A DNA stretch of 64,000 nt, taken from Flavobacterium dauae (GTDB lineage: Bacteria > Bacteroidota > Bacteroidia > Flavobacteriales > Flavobacteriaceae). This document shows positions 49,769 through 63,765 of this stretch, one piece after another. The position numbers and the translations under genes are program-made. The notes under the pieces were generated by a model. It was not told the origin of the DNA and did no database searches. It worked only from the letters and a program-made list of their open reading frames with translations. The stretch lies in the NCBI RefSeq assembly GCF_004151275.2, contig NZ_CP130821.1, forward strand, positions 2,728,001 to 2,792,000, written 5' to 3'. Numbering within the stretch: position 1 is the stretch's first letter; each line of letters begins with the position of its first letter.

Positions 49769-49787
49769 GTTACCGCTGTTGTGTGCT
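49769..49787 (-). other. Half recombination site of the last cassette, cut by the IS
   Basis: GTTACCGCT followed by GTTGTGTGC (49778-49786). The box is the exact complement of GCACACAAC at 51262-51270, the start of the AraC/monooxygenase cassette, so this is that cassette's own far-end box. The other arm of the palindrome is missing, replaced by the IS1182-family right end. Confidence 0.7.
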
Positions 49788-49841
49788 GGGTTTCTCCGTT
49801 AGTCTAAGCTTAATTTATTATCAAGCTGTTTTGTAAACAAA

Positions 49842-49884
49842 GGCAGCCTGTCAAAATTCATTTACAGAACTTTGACAGGCTGCC
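49842..49884 (-). terminator. Hairpin terminator after the monooxygenase gene
   Basis: 14-bp perfect stem GGCAGCCTGTCAAA / TTTGACAGGCTGCC with a 15-nt loop, just past the stop codon of the minus-strand gene. Confidence 0.75.
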
Positions 49885-49907
49885 ATTTTATAATAATTGT
49901 GGTATGT

Positions 49908-50201
49908 TTATTTAGCCGCTAAAACGTCTATTTTCTCTATAGATGGTGCAGTAGCCAACAATTCAGGTGCATTTTCCATTAACGCCTTTGCAATCTTACC
50001 ACCAAGATGTGCTTCTCTGCCTTCTTCATCTGAAAAAGTGTCAAAAATGCCAAATGTAGAAGCGTCAATACGGAACGCATACCATGTAATAGTACCCGCT
50101 TCTTCATTAGCAAGTGGCAATGCACTTGTAATAAACTCTTCAACATTTTTTTCTTTTCCAGCTTTTGCTTCTAGTCGAACTAATAATCCTAATTTTTTCA
50201 T
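49908..50201 (-). CDS. Antibiotic biosynthesis monooxygenase (ABM)-domain protein
   Basis: 97 residues with the ABM/YgiN ferredoxin-like fold pattern: LVRLEAKAGKEKNVEEFI, then EEAGTITWYAFRID and FGIFDTFSDEEGREAHLGGKI. Such proteins act as small quinol monooxygenases or dimeric enzymes. Together with an AraC regulator it fills the last cassette of the array, and it has its own terminator. Confidence 0.82.
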   Translation of the reverse strand: MKKLGLLVRLEAKAGKEKNVEEFITSALPLANEEAGTITWYAFRIDASTFGIFDTFSDEEGREAHLGGKIAKALMENAPELLATAPSIEKIDVLAAK

Positions 50202-50301
50202 GTCTTTTTATTTTTTAATTAAACCAATTTTGTTTTAACAAATTTAGCTCATTGAAGCTTGTGAGGCTTTTTTATTTAGTTCAAAAACTTATGAAAAAAG
50301 G

Positions 50302-51162
50302 TCAAGTTTTCATAATGTTTTTTGGACTGTAACCAAATTCATTTTTAAAGGCTGTGCTAAAATTTGATAAGCTATCATAACCAAAGTCCATATAGATTTC
50401 TGATGGTGTCACTTCATTATTAAGCAATAACTTTTTGGCTTTGTTGAGCCGTTTTAGTTGAAACCATTTTCCTGGAGACTCTTGATATAATTGTATGAAT
50501 TTTCGCTTAAAAGTAGACAGGCTCATATTGCATAGAAAAGCGACCTCATCAATATTCAAACTCGTGTACAGATTTTTTTCAATAACCATTTTAAAAGATA
50601 ATTCTCTTTCGTTGATTAACAAAGAATGTAGATAAACAAAAAAACTTTGCCCATACTTATCAGCCAGATACAGCATAATTTCTTCAAATTTCAATTCCAG
50701 AATCTTTTGAGAGATTGTTTGATTCAAGCCATAAATTTGTTGAATAGAATTAATAAAATGGATAATAAAATTGTCTTTTTGCATAAGGAAATAAGGACTA
50801 CTGGTAGCTGCTTTGTTAAAGTCATTTGGGTTAAATAAATGCCCATATTTCAATAAAAAATCATTAATGTTTTTTTGAGAAAAGAAAAAGAGTAGGCAAC
50901 TATAACTATTTGCCCCAACAATTTCTGTTGTTAAAAAATTCCCCGACGCAAGGAGCAAGGATTGTGTATGATCTATTGAAACGATGTCATTAGAAAAGTG
51001 AATGTCCTTTTGTCCGTCCAACAAAAAACTGAATACATTTTTGTTTAGGTTAATCTTATTTTTGGAAACATGTTTATACACCTCGTAATTAGCAATTTGC
51101 AGGTCTGATGTGTCCGTGTAGTTACTTTCAAATAAATGTTCGGGAAGATTTGTAATGTCCAT
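50302..51162 (-). CDS. AraC-family transcriptional regulator
   Basis: About 286 residues from ATG 51162 (MDITNLPEHLF); an upstream ATG would add 10. The C-terminal double HTH is clear: DEVAFLCNMSLSTFKRKFIQL and PSEIYMDFGYDSLSNFSTAFKNEFGYSP. The N-terminal part is a sensor-like domain. It precedes the monooxygenase gene on the same strand inside one cassette and probably controls it. Confidence 0.88.
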   Translation of the reverse strand: MDITNLPEHLFESNYTDTSDLQIANYEVYKHVSKNKINLNKNVFSFLLDGQKDIHFSNDIVSIDHTQSLLLASGNFLTTEIVGANSYSCLLFFFSQKNINDFLLKYGHLFNPNDFNKAATSSPYFLMQKDNFIIHFINSIQQIYGLNQTISQKILELKFEEIMLYLADKYGQSFFVYLHSLLINERELSFKMVIEKNLYTSLNIDEVAFLCNMSLSTFKRKFIQLYQESPGKWFQLKRLNKAKKLLLNNEVTPSEIYMDFGYDSLSNFSTAFKNEFGYSPKNIMKT

Positions 51163-51261
51163 AATAGGTTGTTTTAAAAAACATTTTTGCATTGTAAATA
51201 TATTAAATTTCTATTTGAAAAATCGTTTGCTCAAGTTTGGATGAAGAGGTCGTTTAGCCTT

Positions 51262-51398
51262 GCACACAACGTGGTGGCGGCTTGACGCAGGCAGGGTATT
51301 TTAGCACTACCGTTGATGCGAGAACCGAATCCAAATTTAGCACAAAAGTTCAAACGGTACAATGCACCTCTGCTTGCGTTCAAACCGCTTGTTACAGG
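51262..51398 (-). other. Cassette recombination site A (attC-like)
   Basis: Left box GCACACAAC, right box GTTACAGG. Arms GCGGCTTGACGCAGGCAGGG (51277-51296) and CCTCTGCTTGCGTTCAAACCGC (51367-51388) pair with small bulges. The loop contains the AGCACAAAAGTTCAAACG motif seen in other sites of the array. It separates the AraC cassette from the TonB-receptor remnant. Confidence 0.75.
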
Positions 51399-51452
51399 CT
51401 GGCGTTCTTTCGGTAAAGTTGTTTTTGTTTTATTTTTATGTGCGGAATGGAG

Positions 51453-51515
51453 GACATACTCTTTGGCAAGCTTTGCTTTGAGCGGTGCCTTGTGTGGCTT
51501 GCCAAAGTGTATGTC
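51453..51515. terminator. Long hairpin after TonB-receptor remnant
   Basis: 19-bp stem with one mismatch, GACATACTCTTTGGCAAGC / GCTTGCCAAAGTGTATGTC. It follows the receptor stop and is probably its terminator. Confidence 0.6.
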
Positions 51516-51529
51516 TGTTATATTATTCC

Positions 51530-52552
51530 TTAAAACTCAAATATAAATCCAATTGAAGGTACAATGGTTGCCGACCGCTGATTTAGAATCAAAGGAATGG
51601 CATTGCTGCCGTCTGCTTTTATCGGTTGTCCATCTGTTGTTTTAAAACCAGTACCATCTTCATTCCTTTCAAAAGTAAATTTGGGTAAATAAGGAGTTTT
51701 ATAAAACAGAATATTTTGAAAATCAACAAATACATCTAAACTTACTTTTTGAAGTTGAATTTTTTATCTATTCTCAAATCCAATTGATTGAAAATAGAAA
51801 GTCGCTTGCTATTGAGTTGTGCATAGTCGTAAACTCCTGTTCCAGTAGTAAAATACATAGCTGTTGATGCGTTCATATCAAAAGGTGTGTAAGGTTGTCC
51901 TCCGGCAATGCGGTATTTCAAGCCGATGTCCCAATTCTTTTTGAATTTGTAACCAAAAGTAGCCGAAACAATAAACCCATAATCCCAAGTGGAAGGTCTG
52001 AATTGATTGTCTATGCCTGAAAATTCCGACTTGTACAATGTGGCACTGGCTACATAGAAAAGGTTTTTAATTAGTTTTTGTTGAATGTATGCTTCAATTC
52101 CGTACACACGCCCTCGTCCTATTGATGTGTATTTGTCGCTACCAACTGCCGAATAATCCGTGCCGATATTGGCATAAGAAATTCCGTTGGTTAAGGAAGT
52201 TGGATAATTTCTGTAATCTTTGTAAAATGCTTCAAAAGTAACCCTCAAATCGTTTTTCGGTACAAACTTCGTTCCGATGGTATAGTGTATAGAATTGGTA
52301 TATTTCAACTCTTTATTGGCAAGTATGCCATTATTGTCTTTATAGCCAAGCATGGTGTAAACAGGCAGTTTGTAGTAACTTCCAACGGATGCAGAAATAT
52401 TCCATTGATTGTTGAATGCATAAGAAAATGAAACCCTTGGAGAAATCGTTCTCAATGGATTTAATCCGTTTTTTGTATAGGTATTAATGTCTGCACGAAG
52501 ACCTCCCGACACTAAGAATTTATCGTCAAAAAATCATTTTGCAACTTGACCA
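51530..52552 (-). pseudogene. C-terminal remnant of a TonB-dependent receptor, with frameshifts
   Basis: Beta-barrel part of a receptor (SPRVSFSYAFNNQWNISASVG, VYGIEAYIQQKLIKNLFYVAS, GLKYRIAGGQPYTPF). One missing A near 51740 breaks the last ~70 codons, which are readable in another frame and end IVPSIGFIFEF. A second missing T near 52525 separates KLQNDFF from DDKFLVSGGLR. The N-terminal half is absent: the IS3-family element starts at the break. Non-functional. Confidence 0.8.
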
Positions 52553-52608
52553 TGTAGGCTTCCCCTTTTTAGTACAGGTTATAATTATACAATATAATAC
52601 ATAGTTTA

Positions 52609-53448
52609 TCACAGTTGAAGGACTGCGTGAGGCGAAGGCGTAGCCGTAGCGGAACGCAGTCCTTCAACTGTTTTTTCTTTCTTTATTTTATAGTTCACCG
52701 GGCTAATTCCTCCTAAGGCATCGTGTGGTCTGTGGTAATTATAATCTTCTATCCATTGGTCGCTTATTTCTCTGACTTGGTCAATGCTATCGAACAAATA
52801 TGCATCGAGTACGTTTTCACGATAACTTTTATTAAAACGTTCTATTAAAGCGTTTTGTGTTGGTTTACCTGGTTGGGTGTATTTAAATTCAATTTCCATA
52901 ACCTGGCTCCAATCCTGTGCTAATTTAGCAATAAATTCAGGTCCATTATCCATTCGTATTCGTTTTGGCTTTCCGTGTTTATTTACAAGGTGTTTTAAAA
53001 CCCAAATAACTCTGCTGCTTTTAAGTGAATAATCGGTTTCTATAAATAATACTTCTCTATTAAAATCATCAATAACATTAAAGCTTCTGAACTTTCTTCC
53101 GTTGGTTAAACTATCGCTCATAAAATCAATACTCCAAGTATGGGTAAAACTTTCAGGAATTTCAATAGTTTCTTTAACTCGCTGCGGTAAGTGTTTTTTA
53201 GTCTTTCTACGATGAGGAAGACCAATCTGTTTATAAACCCTATGCAATCGCTTATGATTTACTTTGTCTCCATCATTACGAAGGCGATAATAACATTTCC
53301 AAAAACCTTCTCTTGGATGGTCTTGAGCAAATTTCTCTAATCGCTGGATTAAATCAGAATCATTTTTGATGGATTGATACTCCAAGCTACTTCGACTAGT
53401 CTGTAAAATACGGCAAGCCTTGCTTTTGCCTTTTGGATATTTGGTCAA
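52609..53448 (-). CDS. IS3-family transposase OrfB (DDE integrase core)
   Basis: 279 residues, retroviral-integrase-like core: WSIDFMSD (first Asp), RMDNGPEF (second Asp), ALIERFNKSYRENV (Glu), followed by the IS3 end motif EDYNYHRPHDALGGISP. Its real start is probably made by -1 frameshifting from orfA, because the -1 frame is open back to the slippery A-run, and the first in-frame start here is a TTG. Confidence 0.92.
   Translation of the reverse strand: MTKYPKGKSKACRILQTSRSSLEYQSIKNDSDLIQRLEKFAQDHPREGFWKCYYRLRNDGDKVNHKRLHRVYKQIGLPHRRKTKKHLPQRVKETIEIPESFTHTWSIDFMSDSLTNGRKFRSFNVIDDFNREVLFIETDYSLKSSRVIWVLKHLVNKHGKPKRIRMDNGPEFIAKLAQDWSQVMEIEFKYTQPGKPTQNALIERFNKSYRENVLDAYLFDSIDQVREISDQWIEDYNYHRPHDALGGISPVNYKIKKEKTVEGLRSATATPSPHAVLQL
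52611..52671. terminator. Perfect 18-bp inverted repeat at the 3' end of orfB
   Basis: ACAGTTGAAGGACTGCGT / ACGCAGTCCTTCAACTGT, followed on the plus strand by a T-run. It overlaps the end of orfB and may block transcription into the element. Confidence 0.65.
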
Positions 53449-53483
53449 AATATCTTTTATGATAGCTCTTTTATGGCAAGGCT

Positions 53484-53750
53484 TTAAAGCTTTTTTTCAA
53501 TGATGTACTTAGCCATATCTAATTCTAAAGCCAAATCAGCATACATCCGTTTGAGTTTGGCGTTTTCTTCTTCAAGAGCTTTTATTTTCTTTAATTCACT
53601 TGCTTCCATGCCGCCGTAGCGTTGACGCCACTTATAAAACGTAGCTTTGCTAACTCCATGTTCTCTAACAATTGTATTAATATCTTTTCCAGATTCAAAT
53701 TCTTGAAGGATCTTCGAGATTTGAGTGGGACTAAATTTACTACTCTTCAT
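53484..53750 (-). CDS. IS3-family transposase OrfA (helix-turn-helix)
   Basis: 88 residues with an HTH of the transposase-8 type ([23 protein letters not shown]) and a coiled-coil C-terminus ([21 protein letters not shown]). It ends just after AAAAAAAG (53490-53497), a likely -1 slippage site giving the OrfAB fusion. Confidence 0.9.
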
Positions 53751-53871
53751 AATTACAGTTTAGTTTAAAATTAATAATTTTTCTCGTTTTAAACTGTACT
53801 TTTTTTGGGGGAGCTTACAACAGTTGTCGGTTATGGTTAGATGTTTGTCTGTCTGTGATAATCTTTCTAAA

Positions 53872-53971
53872 AGTCAGCGAAGGACTGTCCCACCGCAAAA
53901 GTTGAGAAAAGAACAACTGTTGATTTTTGGCACAAAGTTCGATAGAAGTCCGTCAGCGGACAGTCCACCGA
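53872..53971. other. Degenerate palindrome resembling a cassette site
   Basis: GGACTGTCC (53881-53889) and GGACAGTCC (53957-53965) are inverted, and the loop has GGCACAAAGTTCGATAGAAG like the loops of real sites, but AACG and GTT boxes are missing. Likely an inactive site. No gene is visible from 53820 to 54013. Confidence 0.4.
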
Positions 53972-54013
53972 TGACTTTAAAACTGTCGGGATTGTGCAGT
54001 CGTCTAACATTGC

Positions 54014-54114
54014 TGGCAACGGTTCTCGGCTTGGCGTATATGCCGCCTTTTAATAACAAAATTATCAATCCTGGCAGTTACTGCGGCATTACGCCAAACC
54101 GCTTGTTATGTGCC
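54014..54114 (-). other. Cassette recombination site B (attC-like)
   Basis: Left box TGGCAAC, right box GTTATGTGCC. Arms CGGCTTGGCGTATATGCCGCC (54027-54047) and TGCGGCATTACGCCAAACCG pair almost fully; the left arm has one extra T that would be extrahelical. It ends the small zinc-ribbon cassette. Right box versus that cassette's start (GGCACCTAAC): one mismatch. Confidence 0.78.
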
Positions 54115-54129
54115 TTTATTTTTAATATT

Positions 54130-54342
54130 ATGATAGGATTACAAATAAAAAATGGCTTTATTGATTTTGCAAAAACGGACTTTGAATGTCCAAATTGTAA
54201 AAAGAAATACAATGATATAGATGATAAATACTTTGAAAGATGTCAAAGAAACAAGAAGGGGATAACCAAAATAAAATGTGAGTGCGGTAATCCATTTTTT
54301 ATTACCTACGATTATAAAGGTGAGGCTGTGTCGTTTGTATAA
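54130..54342 (+). CDS. Small zinc-ribbon protein in a cassette (reverse orientation)
   Basis: 70 residues with FECPNCKKKY and IKCECGNPFF, four cysteines of a likely zinc ribbon. It runs on the plus strand, toward the integrase, so it is inverted relative to most cassette genes. The whole cassette is only about 333 bp. Family unknown. Confidence 0.6.
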   Translation: MIGLQIKNGFIDFAKTDFECPNCKKKYNDIDDKYFERCQRNKKGITKIKCECGNPFFITYDYKGEAVSFV

Positions 54343-54343
54343 T

Positions 54344-54478
54344 GGCACCTAACGGTTTGCAAATTGGCGATGGAGCCGTTTTTAGCACAAATGTTGAATA
54401 GAAGACAACTCTTCAATCTTGCACAAAAGTTCAATCGAAGCACTTCATCGGCTCTATTGCCAATTTGTTTGTTGTGCG
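54344..54478 (-). other. Cassette recombination site C (attC-like)
   Basis: Left box GGCACCTAAC, right box GTTGTGCG. Arms GCAAATTGGCGATGGAGCCG (54359-54378) and CGGCTCTATTGCCAATTTG (54449-54467) form a long stem in which the plus strand has two G-T wobbles. The loop has two copies of the GCACAAAxGTTCAATxGAAG motif. The right box is complementary to the start of the MarR/SnoaL cassette (CGCACAAC). Confidence 0.83.
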
Positions 54479-54513
54479 TTCGGCTTTATTACTTGTTCGT
54501 TTTAATTGTTTAG

Positions 54514-55068
54514 TTAACCCTTAATTGCTCCAATCAATACATCAAAAAATGAAAGTCTTTGAATCCTTGTATTCTGAAATGAGCTAAATTTCCATTCATC
54601 ATTATACTTTGTAGCTGTAAGTGTTTGAATTGATTTTCTGCTATCAGAGGCTTCCTTTGTAGGCTTAGGGTTAATTACTCCTGTTAAATGAATCAAAGCA
54701 CTGTTTTCCGATAAAAAACGAATTCTTTTTATACTTAACTGTTGCATTTTAGACCCTTTTAATACATCCTCAAAAAGTTTTTGGTGAGCAAGGGCAATTT
54801 GTTCACTGCCGATTAATCGGTCTCCTAAAAAAGTGATATATTCTGCTTTTTTGTCAAACAAATCACCATAAGCCATAAAATCTCCTTTGTCCCAATTTTC
54901 ACGAAGTTTTGAAATCAAACCTTCAATCGCTTTTGTGTCATCCATCCTATCTTTATCAGGTGGAACCACTTCCCCTTCGATAGGCTTGGGGGTTAAATAA
55001 ATAAAGTTCGTTGCTAAAATCAGCAGTAGTAATACTGTTATTACACCAAAAAGAATACTCATTTTCAT
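54514..55068 (-). CDS. SnoaL-like (nuclear transport factor 2 fold) membrane-anchored protein
   Basis: 184 residues: an N-terminal membrane anchor (residues about 4-26), then an NTF2-like domain (KAIEGLISKLRENWDKGDFMAYGDLFDKKAEY) like SgcJ/EcaC and YybH proteins, which often bind small molecules. Divergent from a MarR regulator in the same cassette, with overlapping promoters, so it is the likely target of that regulator. Confidence 0.75.
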   Translation of the reverse strand: MKMSILFGVITVLLLLILATNFIYLTPKPIEGEVVPPDKDRMDDTKAIEGLISKLRENWDKGDFMAYGDLFDKKAEYITFLGDRLIGSEQIALAHQKLFEDVLKGSKMQQLSIKRIRFLSENSALIHLTGVINPKPTKEASDSRKSIQTLTATKYNDEWKFSSFQNTRIQRLSFFDVLIGAIKG

Positions 55069-55093
55069 CCTGTTTTAAAATTTGATTTGGATG

Positions 55094-55123
55094 CAAATGT
55101 AGACATAAAATTTAAAATGTCAA
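55094..55123 (-). promoter_or_regulatory. Consensus promoter for the SnoaL-like gene
   Basis: Minus-strand TTG (55121-55123), exactly 19 nt, then TACATTTG (55094-55101): a full Bacteroidota-type promoter. Its -33 box overlaps the operator-like palindrome. Confidence 0.75.
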
Positions 55124-55147
55124 AATGATTGTAATTTACATCATTTT
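55122..55147. promoter_or_regulatory. Likely MarR operator
   Basis: 8-bp perfect inverted repeat AAAATGAT (55122-55129) / ATCATTTT (55140-55147) between the two divergent promoters, covering both -33 boxes. Confidence 0.55.
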
Positions 55148-55158
55148 CGATATATTTG
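55129..55158 (+). promoter_or_regulatory. Consensus promoter for the MarR gene
   Basis: TTG (55129-55131), 19 nt, TATATTTG (55151-55158): full match to the Bacteroidota consensus, 26 nt before the ATG. Confidence 0.78.
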
Positions 55159-55184
55159 CACCTCCATTTTAGCAAAATGAAATT

Positions 55185-55796
55185 ATGAATACATTAGTTA
55201 GCCTTGTAAATGAATGGGATGAGTTTAATCAACAATACCCTGAATCGGAAATTGATGATTTCTGTAGATATTTTTTAATGAAAGAAGAAAAGGTACTTTC
55301 ACCTGAGGAATGTGCAAAGGACTTTGGGAACTTACTCAAATTGACTTCAAACCTTATGTTTATTTTTGATGTGCTATTTAAAAAGGCTATGAGTAATACT
55401 AATCTACCATTTCCGTCTGCTTATTTTTTCTTAACCCGAATAAAAGCTAAAGGTCAAATTCGAAAAACAGAATTAATTCGAGATATGAGGGCAGAATACT
55501 CTACCGGAATGGAACAAATAACCAAGTTATTAAAAGCAAAGCTTATCAAAGAACACTCTGATTCAAAGGATAAGAGGGTTCGACTTTTGAGCATTACAAA
55601 GGCTGGTTCAAAACTTTTAGACGATTGCTTTCCATATATGGATAAAGTTGGCACATTGATGTTTGGCAATGCAAATCCAGTAAATATGAAAATTTGTATT
55701 ACTTTTTTGAATAATATAATTAGCTTTAGTGAATCAATAGCCCTTGATGAAAAAAGTAAAGATTTTGACCTGCTGTTTGAATTACACAAAAAATAG
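55185..55796 (+). CDS. MarR-family transcriptional regulator
   Basis: 203 residues with a winged-helix core: KAKGQIRKTELIRDMRAEYSTGMEQITKLLKAKLI and the wing HSDSKDKRVRLLSITKAG. It is on the plus strand, opposite to most cassette genes, and divergent from a SnoaL-like gene; a palindrome between the promoters suggests autoregulation and control of the neighbour. A regulated, self-contained cassette. Confidence 0.85.
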   Translation: MNTLVSLVNEWDEFNQQYPESEIDDFCRYFLMKEEKVLSPEECAKDFGNLLKLTSNLMFIFDVLFKKAMSNTNLPFPSAYFFLTRIKAKGQIRKTELIRDMRAEYSTGMEQITKLLKAKLIKEHSDSKDKRVRLLSITKAGSKLLDDCFPYMDKVGTLMFGNANPVNMKICITFLNNIISFSESIALDEKSKDFDLLFELHKK

Positions 55797-55884
55797 TTGA
55801 CCGAAGGGTTTTTGGTCAGTTTATGAAGAATAAATTAACTTTCTCATAAATTCTTGTTGTTTAGAAACTGCTTTTTTAAGCTGA

Positions 55885-56016
55885 CGCACAACGGTCTCGG
55901 CTATGAGTAGTTGCGTGGTTTAGCGGTTAACTTTGCAGGTATACACCAAATTGAAAATCCGCAAGGATTTTCAGAAGTAAGCGAGAACAAGCAATTACTT
56001 ATAGCCATTGTTGTGG
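55885..56016 (-). other. Cassette recombination site D (attC-like)
   Basis: Left box CGCACAAC, right box GTTGTGG. Arms GGCTATGAGTAGTTGC and GCAATTACTTATAGCC pair fully with two G-T positions on the plus strand. The loop holds an extra small hairpin GAAAATCC / GGATTTTC. It closes the CDF transporter cassette (own start CCACAAC). Confidence 0.8.
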
Positions 56017-56031
56017 TTAGTGTTTTTTTAT

Positions 56032-56826: not shown

Positions 56827-56852
56827 TTAGTTTCTTGGTTTTTCAACATTAA

Positions 56853-56985
56853 CCACAACGGTTTGCGGCTTGGCGAAGGTGGCGATTTAACCACAAATGT
56901 TCATACGAAGCACACACTTCAAATTTACGAAAAACTGTCATACGAAGCACTGAACCGCCACTTTTGCCAAACCGCTGTTAGTGGC
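56853..56985 (-). other. Cassette recombination site E (attC-like)
   Basis: Left box CCACAAC, right box GTTAGTGGC. Arms GCGGCTTGGCGAAGGTGGCG (56865-56884) and CGCCACTTTTGCCAAACCGC (56956-56975); GAAG faces TTTT, giving two G-T wobbles on the plus strand. The loop has CACAAATGTTCATACGAAG-type repeats. The right box is the exact complement of the mer cassette start, GCCACTAAC at 58287. Confidence 0.88.
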
Positions 56986-57008
56986 TGGGCTTCTTTGTTT
57001 TCCGTCTG

Positions 57009-57215
57009 TCAGCAACATTTTTTGTCCTGCTGAATTGGTGGACAAGCAACACTTCCGTAGCTACAATAAACACAGCAGTCGCCTTGTTTTGGTTTTAGAA
57101 CTTGTTTGCATTTTTCACATTCGTAAAAATATTGGCAAGCGTCTGTCGGCATTGTTTCTTCTTTCTTATGTCCGCAGTTGGGGCAAGTTATTGTTGATTG
57201 TAATTTGATTTCCAT
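57009..57215 (-). CDS. GDCCVxC-domain metal-related small protein
   Basis: 68 residues, nine cysteines, including CPNCGHKKEE, YECEKCKQVL and QGDCCVYCSYGS, which is the GDCCVxC motif of small proteins found in mercury/arsenic operons. Likely a metal-binding accessory protein. Third gene of the ArsR-MerTP-GDCCVxC operon, 1 nt after MerTP. Confidence 0.85.
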   Translation of the reverse strand: MEIKLQSTITCPNCGHKKEETMPTDACQYFYECEKCKQVLKPKQGDCCVYCSYGSVACPPIQQDKKCC

Positions 57216-57216
57216 T

Positions 57217-57816
57217 TTAATTTTCTTTTTTGTCGGTTACAGAATATCCTGTTGAGTTTATTGCTTTTTCGATTTCAGAAATATTTGTTTTTGAGTTGTC
57301 AAATTCTATGATTGCATTTCCATTTTCATATGAAGCGTTTGAACTTATTATTCCTGTCAATTTATTTACTTCGTGATTTACGTGTTCTTCGCAACTCGCA
57401 CAAGTCATTCCGCTAATCGTAAATTTTACTTTTTGAATATTGGATTTGTCCACTACTATGATTTGCTTTTCTTTCTTTGGGTAGAAAATGCTTGAATAGT
57501 ATGGAAAGGCAAGCATAACGATTGCAAATGCTGTTACAATTCCTAAAAACATTTTTGACTGAATGAATTTTGGTTTTTCTTCTGTCTCACAGTTGCAGTC
57601 AATTTGCTTTTTAGGTTTCAACTTTTGATACCAAGCAAAACCAAGAACCAAAATTGTCAAACCGATAAAATACGGTCTGAAAGGTTCGAGCCAAGAAAAA
57701 GTAGAAGCAAGTCCGCTTGTTCCTGCAATGAGAGCCAAGACAGGTGTAATGCAACACAATGAAGCTGCAATTGCTGTTAAAAGTCCTGCTCCGATTAGTT
57801 TGTTGTCTGTTTTCAT
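57217..57816 (-). CDS. Mercuric transport protein MerTP fusion
   Basis: 199 residues. The N-terminal MerT-like part has three membrane segments with ASLCCITPVL (adjacent cysteines) and CNCETEE in the loop; the C-terminal MerP-like HMA domain has GMTCASCEEHV. The fusion form is common in Bacteroidota. It imports Hg(II) for reduction by MerA in full mer systems, but no merA is present here, so its role in this cassette is unclear. Overlaps the ArsR gene by 4 nt. Confidence 0.88.
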   Translation of the reverse strand: MKTDNKLIGAGLLTAIAASLCCITPVLALIAGTSGLASTFSWLEPFRPYFIGLTILVLGFAWYQKLKPKKQIDCNCETEEKPKFIQSKMFLGIVTAFAIVMLAFPYYSSIFYPKKEKQIIVVDKSNIQKVKFTISGMTCASCEEHVNHEVNKLTGIISSNASYENGNAIIEFDNSKTNISEIEKAINSTGYSVTDKKEN

Positions 57817-58187
57817 AATGTTTCTAATATTTTGTTTTCGTCAAGTATTTTGAAAAACGGTTTCAGCATTTTTTCATACTCTTTTGTCAACGAGTAAAAA
57901 ATGGTTTGTGCTTCTCGTTCGGTTTCAATAAGTTTTCTGTCTTTGAGTTTTCTCAAGTGTTGTGAAACTGCTGAAATTGTCATACCGAGAATGTCGCTTA
58001 TATCACAAACACAAAGTCGTTTTTCTTCATAGAGCAGAAATAGAATTTTCAGTCTTACGTTGTTTCCTGCCAATTCAAGTCCGTTCGATAAATAGTCAAA
58101 CGAGCCGTTGAGTTCTGAAACTCGGTCTTTACAGCGGTTTATTTGTTTAATGTCCGCTTGTTGTCTTATACAAGAATTGTTGTCCAT
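57813..58187 (-). CDS. ArsR/SmtB-family metalloregulator
   Basis: 124 residues from ATG 58187 (MDNNSCIRQQADIK), which sits right behind a consensus promoter; the longer frame upstream crosses the recombination site and is not coding. Winged helix with the metal-site motif CVCDISDILGM and AVSQHLRKLKDRKLI. It probably represses the mer-like operon until metal binds. Confidence 0.9.
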   Translation of the reverse strand: MDNNSCIRQQADIKQINRCKDRVSELNGSFDYLSNGLELAGNNVRLKILFLLYEEKRLCVCDISDILGMTISAVSQHLRKLKDRKLIETEREAQTIFYSLTKEYEKMLKPFFKILDENKILETL

Positions 58188-58191
58188 AGCA

Positions 58192-58221
58192 CAAAGGTAG
58201 TCAATTTGTTTATTTAAGCAA
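58192..58221 (-). promoter_or_regulatory. Consensus promoter inside the mer-like cassette
   Basis: Minus-strand TTG (58219-58221), exactly 19 nt, TACCTTTG (58192-58199), 5 nt before the ArsR start codon. This cassette carries its own promoter. Confidence 0.8.
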
Positions 58222-58286
58222 CTGCTAAAATATAAAATGTCAAAAAGAACCCGATTTTGTCTGACGGGTTGTGTCGTCATAGCCTT

Positions 58287-58421
58287 GCCACTAACGTTTT
58301 GGGTATTGCCGAAGGCGGGGATTTTTAGCACAAAAGTTCAAACGAAGAACGAATGTTGAACCTTGCACAAATGTCCAATCGAAGCCGTTCAGCCCCGCTT
58401 TTGGCAATACCTTGTTAGCGG
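58287..58421 (-). other. Cassette recombination site F (attC-like)
   Basis: Left box GCCACTAAC, right box GTTAGCGG. Arms GGTATTGCCGAAGGCGGGG and CCCCGCTTTTGGCAATACC, GAAG facing TTTT as in site E. The loop has two copies of GCACAAA(A/T)GT(T/C)CAA(A/T)CGAAG. From the AAC of the left box onward it is identical to site J. Confidence 0.9.
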
Positions 58422-58448
58422 TTCGGGCTTCTTTTGTCAGTTTTGTTT

Positions 58449-58904
58449 TCAGTGCTGTTTGTATTCCATATTGTACATATCAAATCCATCTGCCCAATAA
58501 TCTTTTTTAATTTCAAATAGTTCAAAACCTTGCTTTTCATAAAATTTGTAAGCAACCTGTGAAGTTCTAACAGTAATTTTTTGAATACCGTCAATTGAGT
58601 TAAGTTTGTCAATTCTGTGCTTCAATAGTTTTGTTCCCAAAGATTTTCCTTGATAGTCAGGATGAAATATGTCCCAACTAATTTTGCCTATTGTTTTGTC
58701 GCCTGAAAAGTTAATTCCGCCACAACCAACGATTTTTTCGTCATACAGTAATACATAATAGAGCTCTCTTTCGGTCTCTAAATATTTTTTTAAGTCTTCT
58801 TCTTCGTCAGTTGCGAAAAATTCTGGTGTATTCAATTTAATCAAATTAATTACATCATTTTTGTCGCTTGGTTCATATTCTCTTATCGTAATTAAACTTG
58901 TCAT
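58449..58904 (-). CDS. GNAT acetyltransferase (distal copy)
   Basis: 151 residues, GNAT fold: DIFHPDYQGKSLGTKLLKHRI is the acetyl-CoA-binding motif, VAYKFYEKQGFELF the C-terminal beta-bulge. The cassette carrying it appears identical to the first cassette next to the integrase. No promoter of its own is evident. Substrate unknown. Confidence 0.88.
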   Translation of the reverse strand: MTSLITIREYEPSDKNDVINLIKLNTPEFFATDEEEDLKKYLETERELYYVLLYDEKIVGCGGINFSGDKTIGKISWDIFHPDYQGKSLGTKLLKHRIDKLNSIDGIQKITVRTSQVAYKFYEKQGFELFEIKKDYWADGFDMYNMEYKQH

Positions 58905-58960
58905 TTTTCTATACTCAATTGTTGAATGTTTTTATTCTGTGTCGTGTCTTTTTAGCCTGA

Positions 58961-59097
58961 CCGCTAACGTTTCGCGGCTATGCGTCCGGGCGGGGCTTTT
59001 ACCCGGAATTGTTCTTTTGAAAACGCTCATTTCTCGTATCCGTAATTTATCAACCGAAGACGAAAATCCCGCCTGGCGCATAGCCGTTGTTGGTGGC
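58961..59097 (-). other. Cassette recombination site G (attC-like)
   Basis: Left box CCGCTAAC, right box GTTGGTGGC. Arms CGGCTATGCGTCCGGGCGGG and CCCGCCTGGCGCATAGCCG. The loop (GGAATTGTTCTTTTGAAAACGC) differs from sites C, E, F and J but nearly equals site H. It closes the DinB cassette; the stop codon lies 6 nt before the right box. Confidence 0.86.
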
Positions 59098-59102
59098 TGG
59101 CT

Positions 59103-59666
59103 TTATTTGGGCATTATTTTTAATACTTCTTTCGCTTGTTCTAAATGTCTCTGTTCGTGTGTTACGATTATATCAAATGCAGTTTCCAATTTATAAACAA
59201 TATTTTTATTGGCTGGGGATGAAACAACTGTTTCTTTCTTTAATAAATCTTCTGAATTCTCAATCTGCAATTTCAAATCTTCTTGGTGCTTTTCAAACTC
59301 ATTTAAAATGTCAGTTAGTTCTGTGTTTTGGGTCGGTTCCCAAATAGGAAATGTTTTTGTTTTCTTTTTCGTACTTGGCTGTACGGCTTTTAATAAGGAT
59401 TTGCCCAAAAAATTTGTTATGAAATTAAATTTTCCGATGAACGGTATTTTATAATTTCCTTGTCGGATTGAATTTAGGATTGGAAAGTAACTTTTATTAA
59501 TTACAATTAGATGGTCAATATTTTGCGCAATACTCCAAGTTTGTTTGTTAGGTTTCCAATTCATTTGGTCATCTGTTAATGATTCAAATGTTTTCTTGAA
59601 GTCATTTGTAGTTTTGTTTATTTGTTCTATCCAATTTTCTTTTTCCATAGTATTTTTAGACGTCAT
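59103..59666 (-). CDS. DinB-family protein
   Basis: 187 residues, four-helix DinB/YfiT-like fold: WSIAQNIDHLIVINKSYF gives the first metal histidine and VTHEQRHLEQAKEVL the other two. Members bind divalent metal and include thiol-transferases; the activity here is unknown. About 200 bp of leader separates it from the recombination box, and this leader resembles the repeats of the ORF-less cassette upstream. Confidence 0.82.
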   Translation of the reverse strand: MTSKNTMEKENWIEQINKTTNDFKKTFESLTDDQMNWKPNKQTWSIAQNIDHLIVINKSYFPILNSIRQGNYKIPFIGKFNFITNFLGKSLLKAVQPSTKKKTKTFPIWEPTQNTELTDILNEFEKHQEDLKLQIENSEDLLKKETVVSSPANKNIVYKLETAFDIIVTHEQRHLEQAKEVLKIMPK

Positions 59667-59862
59667 TATTAGTTTTAAGTCTATTTATTCCAAGTCTGCG
59701 TTAAAATCCGACGTCTATTTCTTAGTCTAAATGTTCAATTTTTTTGTTATTTTTTTCGACTCGTCTTTATTCTATTTCGTGTTAATTCCGCTCTTGTTGT
59801 TTTTATTTTCAAGTTAATTTAAATCGGAATATTTCTGCTTACCATAATCGTTCTTCAAGCTT

Positions 59863-59999
59863 GCCACCAACGTTCCGCGGCTATGCGCCGGGCGGGGCTT
59901 TTTCCCGGAATTGTCCTTTTGAAAACGCTCATTTCTCGTATCCGTAATCTGTCAACCGAAGACGGATTTCCCGCCTGGCGCATAGCCGCTGTTGGTGGC
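59863..59999 (-). other. Cassette recombination site H (attC-like)
   Basis: Left box GCCACCAAC, right box GTTGGTGGC. Arms GCGGCTATGCGCCGGGCGGG and CCCGCCTGGCGCATAGCCGC. Near-twin of site G. It closes the ORF-less cassette. Confidence 0.86.
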
Positions 60000-60557
60000 T
60001 GGCCTTCTCGGTTGTTTTATAATCCGTTGTTGCTTTTCCGTTCTGCGTTTAAGTCGACCGTAGCAGATGAGCAATAATTTTCGGATTAAAAAACTCAGTT
60101 TGCAAAATTGCGTTTAAGTCAACCGTTATTTTTTTGTTCAATATTTTTCTCAGTTTTTTAAAATTTATTACGATACGTTTTTCACGCTCAGCTTTTATTC
60201 GCCGTAGATTTTTAAATGTTCAATTTAACGAATTATTTTTAAAAATCGAATTCATTTTTTTCCATTCTGCTTTTAAGTCGACCGTTGCAGAAAAACAAAA
60301 ATTTTTGGTTTAAAAAGTTTGTTCGCAAGTTTACGTTTTAATCCGCAGTGATTTTTTCAATTTCTAAGTCTAATTTCCTTTTTGTGTTTTTAAGTTCTGT
60401 TCCACTTTTCAGTCTGCTTTTCAGTTCGCTTTTTCCGTGCTGTTTTTAATTCGACCGTTGCAAAAAAGCAAAAATTTTCGGATTAGAAATTCTGTTTGCA
60501 AATCTGCGTTTAAGTCAACCGTAATTTTTCTTTCAATCGAAAATGTTGTTTAGGCTT
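60000..60557. other. ORF-less cassette body with three ~100-bp repeats
   Basis: No credible ORF in either strand. Three diverged copies at about 60041-60141, 60265-60364 and 60434-60536 share GCGTTTAAGTCGACCG-like strings at both ends and an A-rich centre (AAAATTTTCGGATTA). A weaker copy lies in the DinB cassette leader at about 59690-59745. Might encode RNA or act as a control region; this is inference. Confidence 0.6.
60041..60536. repeat. Three diverged direct repeats of ~100 bp
   Basis: Copies start TTCTGCGTTTAAGTCGACCG, TTCTGCTTTTAAGTCGACCG and GCTGTTTTTAATTCGACCG, and end in AAGTCAACCG, AATCCGCAG and AAGTCAACCG respectively. Spacing between copies is irregular. Confidence 0.65.
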
Positions 60558-60655
60558 GCCACCAACGTTCGGCATATTGGCGAAGTTGCGAGAAAATATA
60601 GATAACAGTTGCGTTTAGTTATGCTCGCAATTTTGCCAATATGCTTGTTGGGTGC
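60558..60655 (-). other. Cassette recombination site I (attC-like)
   Basis: Left box GCCACCAAC, right box GTTGGGTGC. Arms GCATATTGGCGAAGTTGCGAG and CTCGCAATTTTGCCAATATGC, GAAG facing TTTT. Shortest site, with a 31-nt loop lacking the common loop motif. The right box exactly complements GCACCCAAC at 61356, the start of the ankyrin cassette. Confidence 0.9.
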
Positions 60656-60663
60656 ATACTCTT

Positions 60664-61317
60664 TTAGTCAAGCCGTTTTAATAAGTCGTTAAGTTCGCTG
60701 TCGGTTTCGCCAATTGAATGTAAATATTTATTGTGGTCTTCACTAAGTTTGTTGATGTCCGCACCCGCTTGCAGAAGCAGTTTAATACAAGTTTCTTGGT
60801 TGTGTCTGTTCCCCTTGTCGTTTGACATTAAACAATGAATAGCCCAAGCAAGTGGTGTACATTGATAGGTTTTGTCCGGATTGTCCAATGAGGCTTTTGA
60901 CTTTATCAGTCTGTCCACCAATTTATCCCGTCCACAAAAAGCAGCCCAATGCAAAGCAGAAGCGTTATCATTTTCGTCTGTGAAATCTATGTCTGCGCCA
61001 TTGTCAATATAAAAAATACCCAACTTTTCTGCGTGAAGGCTTGCTGCCGCTAAAAGTGGTGTCCCACCAAGTCTGTCTCCGTTAATGTTTGCACCGTTTT
61101 TTAGAAGCGTTTCTGCAAGAGTTATAGCTTCTTCGTCTGTCATTTTACCTGCAAAAACAGCATCGCAGAGTCTGTGTAATGGGTGAGCCTTCGTATGGCA
61201 AAAGAAATCATAAGGAATTGTAATGCCTTCATTGGCAAGGCTGGGTTTGTCCGCAAGTAATTCTTGCAGTCCGTTGTTGTCTTTTTGTTCAATAAGTTTT
61301 TTTATTGTCGGTTTCAT
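60664..61317 (-). CDS. Ankyrin-repeat protein
   Basis: 217 residues with about four ankyrin repeats (LLKNGANINGDRLGGTPLLAA, IDNGADIDFTDENDNASALHW, LLLQAGADINKLSEDHNK). No signal peptide, so a cytoplasmic interaction protein. Second cassette from the integrase; leader about 45 nt without a promoter, stop codon 8 nt from the recombination box. Confidence 0.85.
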   Translation of the reverse strand: MKPTIKKLIEQKDNNGLQELLADKPSLANEGITIPYDFFCHTKAHPLHRLCDAVFAGKMTDEEAITLAETLLKNGANINGDRLGGTPLLAAASLHAEKLGIFYIDNGADIDFTDENDNASALHWAAFCGRDKLVDRLIKSKASLDNPDKTYQCTPLAWAIHCLMSNDKGNRHNQETCIKLLLQAGADINKLSEDHNKYLHSIGETDSELNDLLKRLD

Positions 61318-61355
61318 AAGTCCAATTGCTTAAAGCGTAACGGTCTGTTAGAGTT

Positions 61356-61490
61356 GCACCCAACGTTTTGGGTATTGCCGAAGGCGGGGATTTTTAGCAC
61401 AAAAGTTCAAACGAAGAACGAATGTTGAACCTTGCACAAATGTCCAATCGAAGCCGTTCAGCCCCGCTTTTGGCAATACCTTGTTAGCGG
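61356..61490 (-). other. Cassette recombination site J (attC-like)
   Basis: Left box GCACCCAAC, right box GTTAGCGG. Same arms and loop as site F. It closes the first cassette (GNAT). Confidence 0.9.
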
Positions 61491-61517
61491 TTCGGGCTTC
61501 TTTTGTCAGTTTTGTTT

Positions 61518-61973
61518 TCAGTGCTGTTTGTATTCCATATTGTACATATCAAATCCATCTGCCCAATAATCTTTTTTAATTTCAAATAGTTCAAAACCTT
61601 GCTTTTCATAAAATTTGTAAGCAACCTGTGAAGTTCTAACAGTAATTTTTTGAATACCGTCAATTGAGTTAAGTTTGTCAATTCTGTGCTTCAATAGTTT
61701 TGTTCCCAAAGATTTTCCTTGATAGTCAGGATGAAATATGTCCCAACTAATTTTGCCTATTGTTTTGTCGCCTGAAAAGTTAATTCCGCCACAACCAACG
61801 ATTTTTTCGTCATACAGTAATACATAATAGAGCTCTCTTTCGGTCTCTAAATATTTTTTTAAGTCTTCTTCTTCGTCAGTTGCGAAAAATTCTGGTGTAT
61901 TCAATTTAATCAAATTAATTACATCATTTTTGTCGCTTGGTTCATATTCTCTTATCGTAATTAAACTTGTCAT
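61518..61973 (-). CDS. GNAT acetyltransferase (integrase-proximal copy)
   Basis: 151 residues, protein identical to the copy at 58449-58904. It is the first gene behind the attachment site, the position where new cassettes arrive in integrons. Leader of about 60 nt without a consensus promoter. Confidence 0.88.
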   Translation of the reverse strand: MTSLITIREYEPSDKNDVINLIKLNTPEFFATDEEEDLKKYLETERELYYVLLYDEKIVGCGGINFSGDKTIGKISWDIFHPDYQGKSLGTKLLKHRIDKLNSIDGIQKITVRTSQVAYKFYEKQGFELFEIKKDYWADGFDMYNMEYKQH

Positions 61974-62029
61974 TTTTCTATACTCAATTGTTGAATGTTT
62001 TTATTCTGTGTCGTGTCTTTTTAGCCTGA

Positions 62030-62080
62030 CCGCTAACTTGTTTATACACGCAATATACTATCTTTTTTTTAATGTTAAAT
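62030..62080 (-). other. Putative primary attachment site (attI-like)
   Basis: CCGCTAAC (62030-62037) is the start box of the first cassette; it is followed by TTGTTTATACACGC instead of an attC arm. The sequence changes from cassette to non-cassette exactly at the predicted crossover. The 130 bp to the recombinase start are AT-rich; I see no exact TAnnTTTG promoter in either direction. Confidence 0.7.
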
Positions 62081-62171
62081 AAAAAGTGTAAAAAATAAAG
62101 TATCAATACGTTATATTTAATTTTAATTACGTATTTTTAATCTGTTAAAATTAACCTTTAGTACGTGTTTT

Positions 62172-63254
62172 ATGAATGAGGAATGGTTAAATTATCTTAC
62201 GTTTAAAGAAACGGTTCATAGAAACCAAAAGGTAATTCTATGTCATTTTCAATACAATCCGCAAATTCTAAGTGCTTTTAAAAAAGAATTCCCCTCGGTT
62301 AAATGGTCGCGTACTCATAAAACGTGGTACGTACCAAATACAACTCTTTTTCGTAAACGGCTAAATTTACCGCTGCCCGGGTTAGGCGATAACTGGTTGC
62401 CTAAAATCTACGAATACAATAAAGTAGAATTTATAAAATTTAGAAATGTACTTGTTCAAAAAATGTATTCGCAAAATACTATTAACACATATCTTTCAGA
62501 GTTTGCGCAATTGCTTATCTTACTTAAAAACAAGCCTGTTAGCGAACTTACTTATGAACGCTTAAATGCGTATTTTCTTTATTGTATTAAAACCTTAAAA
62601 CATTCCGAAGCTCAAGTTTATTCTAGAATGAATGCCATTAAGGCTTACTTTAAATATGTGCTTAATGAAGATGCTGTATTTGATAAAGTAATTAGACCAA
62701 AACCAACCAAACAACTACCTAAAGTTTTTAGTAAACAAGAAGTTTTAAAGCTTTTTGCAGTTACTCAAAATTTAAAACATTTGCTTATCTTAAAAATGGC
62801 GTACGGTATGGGGTTAAGGGTAAGCGAACTTATTGTTCTAAAAATAAATCATATCGATTTAGACCGGATGCAAGTGCATATAATTTCGTCTAAAGGTAAA
62901 AAAGACCGCTATGTAAATTTTCCCGAAAGTCTTGTGTCGCTTTATTTAGATTATTTAAAAGCGTATCAGCCAACATCTTATTTATTTCAAGGACAATATT
63001 CAGAGCAATACGCCATCCGTAGTGCACAAGCGGTTTTTAGAAACGCAATAAACAAAGCACAAATAAATAAAAAAGTGGGTATTCACGGTTTAAGGCATTC
63101 TTACGCAACCCATTTGTTAGAAGCGGGTACCGATATGATTTTTATTCAAAAACTATTGGGACACAACCATATAAAAACAACCGAAGTGTATGCCAAAGTG
63201 TCCAACAAAATACTGTCTAAAGTTAAAAGTCCCTTAGACGATCTAAAAGATTAA
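62172..63254 (+). CDS. Tyrosine recombinase, putative cassette integrase
   Basis: 360 residues. Catalytic set complete: Arg216 (GMGLRVSEL), Lys241 (SSKGKKDR), His305 and Arg308 (HGLRHSYATH), His331 (LLGHNHIKTT), Tyr340 (VYAKV). It ends VKSPLDDL, like the SPLD tail of IntI. The Arg216-His305 distance is 89 residues, near XerD (96) and far from IntI1 (131), so the IntI insertion is absent. Residues 1-75 form an extra domain (FPSVKWSRTHKTWYVPN) before the SAM-like core-binding domain (about 84-165). Points away from the cassettes, as in integrons. Confidence 0.88.
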   Translation: MNEEWLNYLTFKETVHRNQKVILCHFQYNPQILSAFKKEFPSVKWSRTHKTWYVPNTTLFRKRLNLPLPGLGDNWLPKIYEYNKVEFIKFRNVLVQKMYSQNTINTYLSEFAQLLILLKNKPVSELTYERLNAYFLYCIKTLKHSEAQVYSRMNAIKAYFKYVLNEDAVFDKVIRPKPTKQLPKVFSKQEVLKLFAVTQNLKHLLILKMAYGMGLRVSELIVLKINHIDLDRMQVHIISSKGKKDRYVNFPESLVSLYLDYLKAYQPTSYLFQGQYSEQYAIRSAQAVFRNAINKAQINKKVGIHGLRHSYATHLLEAGTDMIFIQKLLGHNHIKTTEVYAKVSNKILSKVKSPLDDLKD

Positions 63255-63397
63255 AATTCATAAGTCACTAAAAAACAAATGAATAATCGACAACAAACGC
63301 TTACAATCGACTATAAATGATTAACAACCGAATAAAATTTGTAACTTATAGCAACTTTGTACCAGATAATTATTTAATCATTTAAAATTTAAACGCC

Positions 63398-63721: not shown

Positions 63722-63726
63722 CCACC

Positions 63727-63765
63727 AAAACAGATGCACAAATTAAATAACTGTGCATCTGTTTT
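63727..63765 (+). terminator. ssb terminator
   Basis: 14-bp stem AAAACAGATGCACA / TGTGCATCTGTTTT, just after the ssb stop. Confidence 0.82.

What the first reader, a model, noticed from the sequence alone, without database searches (positions are those of the whole stretch)
49769..63254. Integron-like cassette system in a flavobacterial chromosome
Seen: a tyrosine recombinase, a junction where cassette sequence stops, and about 12 cassettes separated by ten same-direction palindromic sites plus one half-site, with most genes reading away from the recombinase. Known: this is the intI-attI-cassette layout. Inference: a working or recently working integron whose recombinase is outside the standard IntI group. 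I know of no described flavobacterial system with this recombinase type, but cannot search.
Basis: partly seen in the sequence, partly recalled or inferred. Interest (0 to 1): 0.95.

Follow-up and report, generated by a model that had tools for sequence, protein, structure and literature searches.

The report
Integron without IntI in Flavobacterium
This bacterial chromosome carries a row of gene units separated by hairpin-forming sites, and the same units occur duplicated or nearly identical in distant relatives with edges at or near those sites; they are likely captured and shuffled by the recombinase next door, which lacks the extra domain that defines integron integrases, so integron-style gene capture may have evolved more than once.

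Summary
Ten complete hairpin sites, all on one strand, separate 10 cassettes plus a truncated distal one, beside a 360-aa tyrosine recombinase (62172-63254). Simulated sequence gives 0-1 such sites per window. Across 120 fetched recombinase loci, 273 of 278 sites point away from the recombinase. A sequence-only alignment of 150 sites pairs in 91% of cells, covariation 0.69 against 0.16 in shuffles. Cassettes move as units: one is duplicated without mismatch from core to core, others recur at 89-99% identity in other genomes with edges at or near cores, and two genomes with an identical recombinase gene diverge abruptly at attI. The recombinase is not IntI: 172 bits against a cut-off of 265, about 41 residues of the IntI domain missing. 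IntI occurs in 1 of 390 genomes of the class searched. Best reading: an integron-like cassette-capture system run by an Xer-type recombinase without the IntI domain, predicted to recombine folded single-stranded sites. Ten searches of the PMC library listed no description; preprints were not searchable. Recombination itself is untested.

The parts
62172..63254 (+). Tyrosine recombinase (integrase), 360 aa; N-terminal bb-a-bb-a domain (about residues 10-63), SAM-like core-binding domain (89-167), catalytic domain (185-344)
   Evidence: motifs GLRVSE 214, KGKKDR 241, HGLRHS 305, LLGH 328, Y340
62033..62060 (-). attI-like site: TATATTGCGTGTATAAACAAG|TTA read away from the recombinase (cut point G|TT inferred by analogy); the first cassette begins here
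   Evidence: a pattern written after looking at the rows matches upstream of the recombinase in 19 of 28 rows of the 5' clade; similar sequence seen by eye downstream of the stop codon in several loci with 3' arrays
61352..61496 (-). attC-like site J (right core 61362)
60554..60660 (-). attC-like site I
59859..60004 (-). attC-like site H
58956..59099 (-). attC-like site G
58283..58427 (-). attC-like site F, same sequence type as J
56847..56990 (-). attC-like site E
   Evidence: similar sites on three Bacteroidota plasmids
55880..56023 (-). attC-like site D
   Evidence: score 21, just below the stricter threshold
54341..54484 (-). attC-like site C
54008..54118 (-). attC-like site B
51258..51404 (-). 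attC-like site A
49769..49800 (-). truncated distal site (left half only); array end
   Evidence: sequence; 95% homology to L176 stops at 49777
61364..62036 (-). cassette 1: GNAT acetyltransferase (61518-61973)
   Evidence: no mismatch to cassette 5 over 58293-58968 at offset 3069
60566..61363 (-). cassette 2: ankyrin-repeat protein (60664-61317)
59871..60565 (-). cassette 3: no clear gene; imperfect internal repeats 60033-60529
58968..59870 (-). cassette 4: DinB-superfamily protein (59103-59666)
58295..58967 (-). cassette 5: GNAT acetyltransferase (58449-58904), duplicate of cassette 1
56859..58294 (-). cassette 6: ArsR-type regulator, MerTP-type mercuric transport protein, small cysteine-rich ORF
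   Evidence: 98.7% identical in the F. enshiense array, 95.5% in L161
55892..56858 (-). cassette 7: cation-efflux (CDF) transporter (56032-56826)
   Evidence: 95.5% in Algibacter onchidii L030, 89% in L174 with both edges at cores
54353..55891 (-). cassette 8: SgcJ/EcaC-family protein (54514-55068, -) and MarR-like regulator (55185-55796, +)
   Evidence: the MarR-like name rests on weak sub-cut-off hits
54020..54352 (-). cassette 9: short; a small ORF on the plus strand (54130-54342) that reads like a zinc-ribbon protein by eye
51270..54019 (-). cassette 10: TonB-receptor-like remnant (51742-52512) and a two-ORF IS3-like insertion (52609-53750)
   Evidence: names from reading the sequence, no family search run
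49777..51269 (-). distal cassette with truncated site: AraC-type regulator (50302-51192) and monooxygenase-like ORF (49908-50201)
   Evidence: 94.8% over 1495 nt on an Adhaeribacter radiodurans plasmid, whose annotation names both ORFs

Best explanation
An integron-like platform: gene cassettes, each ending in a hairpin-forming site, are likely inserted one by one at an attI site by the adjacent Xer-type tyrosine recombinase, which lacks the IntI-specific domain. Shown by sequence: an attI-like sequence beside the recombinase, sites of fixed polarity, conserved base pairing of the sites, cassette-exact duplication and sharing between genomes, and unit boundaries at one core only (CGTTR, the R' core). 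Inferred: the recombinase itself does the moving, cutting at G|TT. Predicted: it acts on one folded strand of the site, the strand being chosen by the uneven unpaired spacer (commonly 1 nt on the R'' side, 4 nt on the R' side), as in integrons; and its N-terminal domain may help to hold the hairpin, which is the most speculative step because some array-linked recombinases lack that domain.
For: Polarity and linkage: 273 of 278 sites in 120 recombinase loci point away from the recombinase, 241 on its 3' side and 32 on its 5' side. Pairing: 91.2% of cells paired and covariation 0.692 on an alignment made from sequence alone, against 0.162 in shuffles and 0.04-0.13 when slid. Cassette exactness: zero mismatches from 58293 to 58968 against the copy 3069 nt away, with mismatches at 58292 and 58969; homology ends lie within 10 nt of an R' core in 23 of 105 cases and of an R'' core in 4, with 1.7 and 1.8 expected. 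Turnover at attI: L147 and L148, identical recombinase gene, are identical for 164 nt upstream of its start up to GTTA and then unrelated (27% ungapped identity over 2 kb). Sharing across taxa. Genus-wide association: at least 3 sites in 113 of 137 recombinase-positive and 42 of 112 negative genomes, Fisher p 4e-13. ORF direction: in 209 of 231 cassettes the longest ORF reads in array direction.
Against: No recombination was observed. 21 of 81 well-flanked loci have no site by the strict rule, 62 of 80 more widely drawn named loci have none, and 11 of 137 recombinase-positive genomes have no modelled site. 23 of 112 genomes without a close recombinase match have at least 5 sites. Of 22 of these rechecked, 7 have a match better than 1e-35; in 5 of those 7 it lies on a stretch with sites (G799, G642, G740, G717, and a broken copy in G734), in G643 the fetched locus has no site, and G794 was not fetched. 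Another 12 match only at 1e-26 to 1e-29, a level that 10 of 15 site-free genomes reach too, and 3 (G639, G654, G714) match nothing at 1e-25. In the tree the array-linked rows are not one clade: L299 (three modelled sites nearby) groups with IntI and proteobacterial recombinases on an unstarred branch. At least 78 of 105 homology ends lie at neither core. Hairpin conservation alone does not separate single-stranded DNA from RNA function.
Confidence: 0.86

Rival explanations
1. The cassettes are real and moved by the recombinase, but through double-stranded sites, as in Xer or phage integration; the hairpins serve another purpose such as transcription termination or RNA stability.
For: Relatives by fold and sequence are archaeal XerA/XerC-like enzymes, and Xer proteins lack the I2 domain used by IntI for single-stranded substrates (PMC7790495, section 21 read).
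Against: Most stem positions change while pairing is kept; unit boundaries lie at one core of a nearly symmetric site, which needs strand or side choice.
Confidence: 0.2
2. A true but divergent IntI integron whose integrase has lost or changed its additional domain.
For: The site logic and the GTT junction resemble integrons; IntI4 is among the best structural matches; rows L298 and L299 sit nearer to IntI, on an unstarred branch.
Against: None of the array-linked rows measured shows the extra length (91-92 residues between two motifs where both were found, against 133 in two IntI rows); the four IntI rows form their own clade; canonical boxes RYYYAAC and GTTRRRY occur together in 0 of 297 sites.
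Confidence: 0.06
3. The palindromes are MITE-like or REP-like repeats that insert between genes, with a recombinase nearby by chance.
For: The sites are repeated palindromes, and five single ones lie elsewhere in the genome.
Against: Duplicated and shared units contain gene plus one site and end at R' cores; polarity relative to the recombinase is nearly perfect.
Confidence: 0.03
4. A relic: cassette movement happened in the past by another enzyme, and the present recombinase does not take part.
For: In G734 an array sits beside a broken recombinase copy.
Against: Zero divergence between duplicated cassettes, an intact recombinase with conserved catalytic motifs, and an attI-like sequence beside the recombinase in both layouts.
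Confidence: 0.08

Closest known systems
Integrons (IntI, attI, attC), sedentary chromosomal type
   Same: attI beside the integrase gene, GTT junction, cassettes that mostly carry one gene or few and one hairpin site, fixed polarity, very large arrays (59 modelled sites in 94.9 kb of a Persicobacter plasmid), sites 84-97% alike throughout two related arrays
   Different: the recombinase lacks the additional domain and is not in the IntI clade; site boxes are NNNYAAC/GTTRNNN with GCAA following, not RYYYAAC/GTTRRRY; median site length 135 nt, at the long end of the canonical range (range recalled); the host class almost lacks IntI
Archaeal XerA / XerC-like recombinases (4a8e, 5hxy; NCBIfam NF040815)
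   Same: closest by sequence and predicted fold
   Different: known function, recalled, is chromosome dimer resolution at dif; here an N-terminal domain is added and a cassette array attached
Salinibacter ruber integron (the Bacteroidetes example named in the IntegronFinder 2.0 passages)
   Same: integron in the phylum in the broad sense
   Different: found by IntI models; another class (recalled); passages read in PMC9024848

Membership tests
Integron in the strict sense (IntI-based) | integrase scoring as IntI (TIGR02249 cut-off 265 bits) | tested here: not met
   171.6 bits; a true IntI in a like test scored 465.8 (L097)
Integron in the strict sense (IntI-based) | IntI-specific additional domain between the catalytic motifs | tested here: not met
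   22 profile positions where IntI4 has 65 residues; motif spacing 91 in the window's enzyme against 133 in two IntI rows
Integron in the strict sense (IntI-based) | recombinase inside the IntI clade | tested here: not met
   IntI a separate clade at 100/100, but only 4 of 16 intended IntI rows reached the tree
Integron in the strict sense (IntI-based) | attC boxes RYYYAAC and GTTRRRY | tested here: not met
   16 of 297 sites fit the first, 18 of 297 the second, 0 of 297 both
Integron (functional layout) | attI beside the integrase as insertion point of cassettes | tested here: met
   attI-like sequence and array divergence exactly there in one pair of loci
Integron (functional layout) | cassettes as units of gene plus one imperfect palindrome in fixed orientation | tested here: met
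Integron (functional layout) | recombination of the folded bottom strand of attC | not testable with these tools
   conserved pairing and an uneven spacer only
Integron (functional layout) | match to the attC covariance model of IntegronFinder | not tested
   that model is not held; Rfam has no significant match in 44000-64000
XerA (NF040815 equivalog) | score over the curated cut-off of 220 bits | tested here: not met
   191.2 bits; array-linked relatives L039 and L031 reach 220.8 and 235.0

The most novel reading that the evidence does not exclude
Bacteroidia evolved their own integrons: an Xer-type recombinase without the IntI I2 domain captures gene cassettes through folded single-stranded hairpin sites, a second origin of integron-style gene capture that is common in Flavobacterium and reaches plasmid arrays of about 100 kb.
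Probability: 0.6. Interest if true: 0.96.

Novelty: new variant of a known kind. Interest (0 to 1): 0.9.

Why it matters
Integrons are thought to have gained single-strand recombination when an Xer-like ancestor acquired the I2 helix (PMC7790495, abstract and section 21 read). A second, widespread cassette system without that domain would show that the helix is not the only route, and gives a comparison in which what hairpin recombination really needs can be tested. It also points to a gene-exchange pool that searches keyed to IntI may miss: 195 of 249 genomes of this genus carry at least one such site at E<=1e-4, while IntI was found in 1 of 390 genomes of the class.

Tried and rejected
MITE or REP repeats and plain terminators were considered and rejected because shared units end at R' cores and contain gene plus one site. 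An RNA-family explanation gave nothing: one sub-threshold snoRNA-like match in 44000-64000. The N-terminal domain was modelled alone (pLDDT about 90 for residues 10-63) but has no convincing match among solved structures by fold (best E 0.43) or by sequence (best 0.0011, a chain named a-iTHR-201, with no single stretch passing), nor in Pfam; a resemblance to HARP-type DNA-binding domains is recalled only and found no support. The idea that this domain is required was weakened by short array-linked recombinases without it. The IntI tree parser kept 4 of 16 rows. Array labels in the first tree rest on one outward site or more, so single-site labels (for example in proteobacterial rows) may be chance.
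Full report
What is there. The window lies in a single-contig genome of 2.94 Mb. Its genus is inferred as Flavobacterium: a same-genus genome (G806) has a contig of the same length (272,457) and an identical recombinase gene as Flavobacterium enshiense DK69; the class name Bacteroidia follows from that. At 62172-63254 lies a 360-aa tyrosine recombinase, followed by an ORF that reads like a single-stranded-DNA-binding protein (63398-63721; by eye, not searched). On its 5' side, from 62037 down to about 49772, lies an array of ten complete palindromic sites and one truncated site. All ten are on the minus strand. A covariance model of them finds those ten and nothing comparable in the window, and 15 places in the whole genome at E<1e-3, ten of them here. 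A rule based on structure and two short cores finds the same ten, and 0 or 1 in each of five first-order simulations.

The sites. Read away from the recombinase, a site is NNNYAACA, a stem with small interruptions, a variable loop region, the returning stem, and CGTTRNNNGCAA. Among 296 sites found by the rule the median length is 135 nt, and the stem most often (199 of 296) starts 1 nt after the left core and 4 nt before the right core, so the folded strand has an uneven unpaired spacer. The rule itself imposes the cores, so core conservation in that set is not evidence; in the ten window sites CGTT is invariant. To test pairing without structural bias, a sequence-only model was searched over 75 chosen sources, giving 284 matches at E<=0.001, of which the best 150 were aligned. 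On that alignment 91.2% of 2547 cells pair, 642 cells carry a change on both sides, and the covariation score is 0.692, against 0.162 in shuffles and 0.038-0.133 when the partners are slid. The rows are related, which the tool warns can inflate such scores against shuffles, but the slid versions keep relatedness. The hairpin appears to be under selection.

Linkage and polarity. Recombinase relatives are found in 137 of 249 genomes of the genus at E<=1e-50, 14 of 199 of the family at 1e-60 and 19 of 395 of the class at 1e-90. In 120 fetched recombinase loci, 273 of 278 rule sites point away from the recombinase and 5 toward it; 241 lie outward on its 3' side and 32 outward on its 5' side; no locus has outward sites on both sides. 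Of 81 loci with at least 2 kb on both sides, 60 have at least one site; 21 do not. In 80 named loci drawn more widely, from Bacteroidota and other phyla, 18 have rule sites (34 sites, 33 outward) and 62 have none. The window's recombinase belongs to a supported clade of 35 rows in which 18 have 5' arrays, 16 have no array found and 1 has a 3' array; outside it, 68 of 70 labelled rows have 3' arrays. In both layouts a similar attI sequence, roughly TGCGTATATTnnnGAG|TTR, lies between recombinase and array (the pattern was written after looking and matched 19 of 28 rows of the 5' clade; the 3' rows were compared by eye and not all show it). Genome-wide, at least 3 modelled sites occur in 113 of 137 recombinase-positive and 42 of 112 negative genomes (at most 12 candidates were scored per genome). 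Of the 23 negative genomes with at least 5 sites, 22 were rechecked: 7 have a match better than 1e-35, on a stretch with sites in 5 of them (one a broken copy); 12 match only at 1e-26 to 1e-29, as do 10 of 15 site-free genomes; 3 have no match at 1e-25.

Cassettes move as units. The GNAT cassette occurs twice in the window with no mismatch from 58293 to 58968 against the copy 3069 nt away; the adjoining bases on both sides differ. The ArsR/MerTP cassette (56859-58294) is 98.7% identical in the F. enshiense array (match 56838-58326, some 20-30 nt past the cores at each end) and 95.5% in a genome of another family (L161; match runs on through the next, similar site). The CDF cassette (55892-56858) is 95.5% identical in Algibacter onchidii, where one end is at the core and the other 35 nt beyond, and 89% in L174, both ends at cores; the distal cassette is 95% identical in L176 and 94.8% over 1495 nt on a plasmid of Adhaeribacter radiodurans, a cytophagal, ending at the core, with a modelled site adjoining. 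Over 61 homology blocks between fetched loci (6 pairs with long total alignment dropped first), 23 of 105 block ends fall within 10 nt of an R' core, 4 within 10 nt of an R'' core, with 1.7 and 1.8 expected; at least 78 fall at neither. Five blocks have both ends at an R' core; two of these are the same pair seen through two copies of the F. enshiense locus. This one-sided pattern is that of integron cassettes, whose boundary is the R' core. L147 and L148, placed in different families, have a 100% identical recombinase gene and 98.8% identity over 6384 nt around it; going upstream they stay identical for 164 nt, up to GTTA of attI, and then show 27% ungapped identity over 2 kb. That is array turnover at attI, or transfer of the platform between hosts; contamination of one assembly cannot be excluded. 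L175 and L176 (recombinase genes 92% identical) share a 3812-nt identical block at different offsets.

Scale. A Persicobacter psychrovividus plasmid carries 59 modelled sites at E<=0.05, all on one strand, in 94.9 kb searched, with one more rule site nearer the record end; recombinase-like sequence lies across the start of the circular record, at the end the sites point away from. Of 231 cassettes examined across chosen loci, 209 have their longest ORF in array direction; in the window 5 of 7.

The recombinase. By sequence it is nearest to XerA-type enzymes, below the curated cut-off (191 of 220 bits), and far below the IntI cut-off (172 of 265); a true IntI scored 466 in a like test. Where solved IntI4 has 65 residues the family profile has 22 positions. 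The spacing between two catalytic motifs is 91-92 residues in the array-linked rows where both motifs were found, and 133 in the two IntI rows where it could be measured. In the tree four IntI rows form a separate clade (100/100); 12 of 16 intended IntI rows were lost by the parser. The array-linked rows themselves are not one clade there: L298 and L299 fall with IntI and proteobacterial recombinases on an unstarred branch, and of these L299 has three modelled sites nearby and L298 none. IntI above cut-off occurs in 57 of 198 genomes of the phylum but 1 of 390 of the class, and the site model finds nothing at E<=0.01 in 20 IntI loci of about 4 kb or in two Xer loci of the home genome. The N-terminal domain of the window's enzyme is confidently modelled but unlike any solved structure found. 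It is present in the relatives aligned but not in the 279-aa array-linked ones.

How it likely works. By analogy with integrons, the recombinase would join a folded single strand of a cassette's site to double-stranded attI, cutting at G|TT in R', so that each new cassette lands next to attI and points outward. Shown here: cassette units, boundary, polarity, attI-like sequence, pairing. Inferred: that this enzyme does it. Predicted and untested: single-strand use and the role of the uneven spacer. In known integrons the unpaired central spacer and extrahelical bases direct strand choice (PMC2727003, passages read). The published view is that Xer proteins lack the I2 element used to recognise single-stranded substrates and to avoid a second strand exchange (PMC7790495, abstract and section 21 read). 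If the prediction is right, this family solved the problem differently.

Literature. Ten searches of the PMC open library listed no paper whose title or abstract start describes such a system. Passages read: PMC9024848 names one complete integron in a Bacteroidetes species, Salinibacter ruber; PMC8618304 lists Bacteroidota among integron-bearing phyla without detail; PMC9668308, PMC2426708, PMC9892861 and PMC7923331 describe no such system in the passages shown. Preprints and most subscription papers were not searchable, so a prior description is possible.

Verdict. It works like an integron but fails the tests for the IntI family, so it is filed as a new variant of a known kind, with an independent origin of integron-type gene capture as the boldest reading still open.

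Noticed in passing
own genome, G000:C1 171024, 1454611, 2875507, 2886417, 2889596: Five single sites outside the array, three of them within 15 kb of each other; possibly cassettes inserted off-site.
   Followed up: no
L200, L201, L203 and similar genus hits: A class of array-linked recombinases in open frames of mostly 590-620 codons; the long upstream part was not examined, and the true start is unknown.
   Followed up: partly
L293-L296: Short 279-aa array-linked recombinases without the N-terminal domain; G799 has two copies, each with an array on its 5' side.
   Followed up: partly
L297: An array of about a dozen sites beside a broken recombinase copy (matches in two frames), like a cluster of sites that lost its integrase.
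   Followed up: partly
L268 3613-5355, L266 12246-12531: Group II intron matches in two plasmid arrays: about 100 nt behind a site in L268, and behind the shared distal cassette in L266; group II introns are known in integron arrays (PMC7923331, passages read).
   Followed up: partly
L267 10805-13724: On a Flagellimonas plasmid two sites, a dihydrofolate-reductase-family gene, an annotated erm(F) and a xerA-named recombinase lie together.
   Followed up: no
window 52609-53750: Two-ORF transposase unit beside a TonB-receptor-like remnant inside cassette 10; the sequence reads like an IS3-type element (by eye).
   Followed up: no
window 60033-60529: Gene-poor cassette with three imperfect copies of a 100-nt repeat.
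   Followed up: no
L186, L187: Sites of the two arrays are 84-97% alike although the recombinase genes are only 69% identical, like species-group site families in large integrons.
   Followed up: no
NCBIfam NF040815: The family is named 'site-specific tyrosine recombinase/integron integrase', so database labels call such proteins integron integrases although they do not score as IntI.
   Followed up: no
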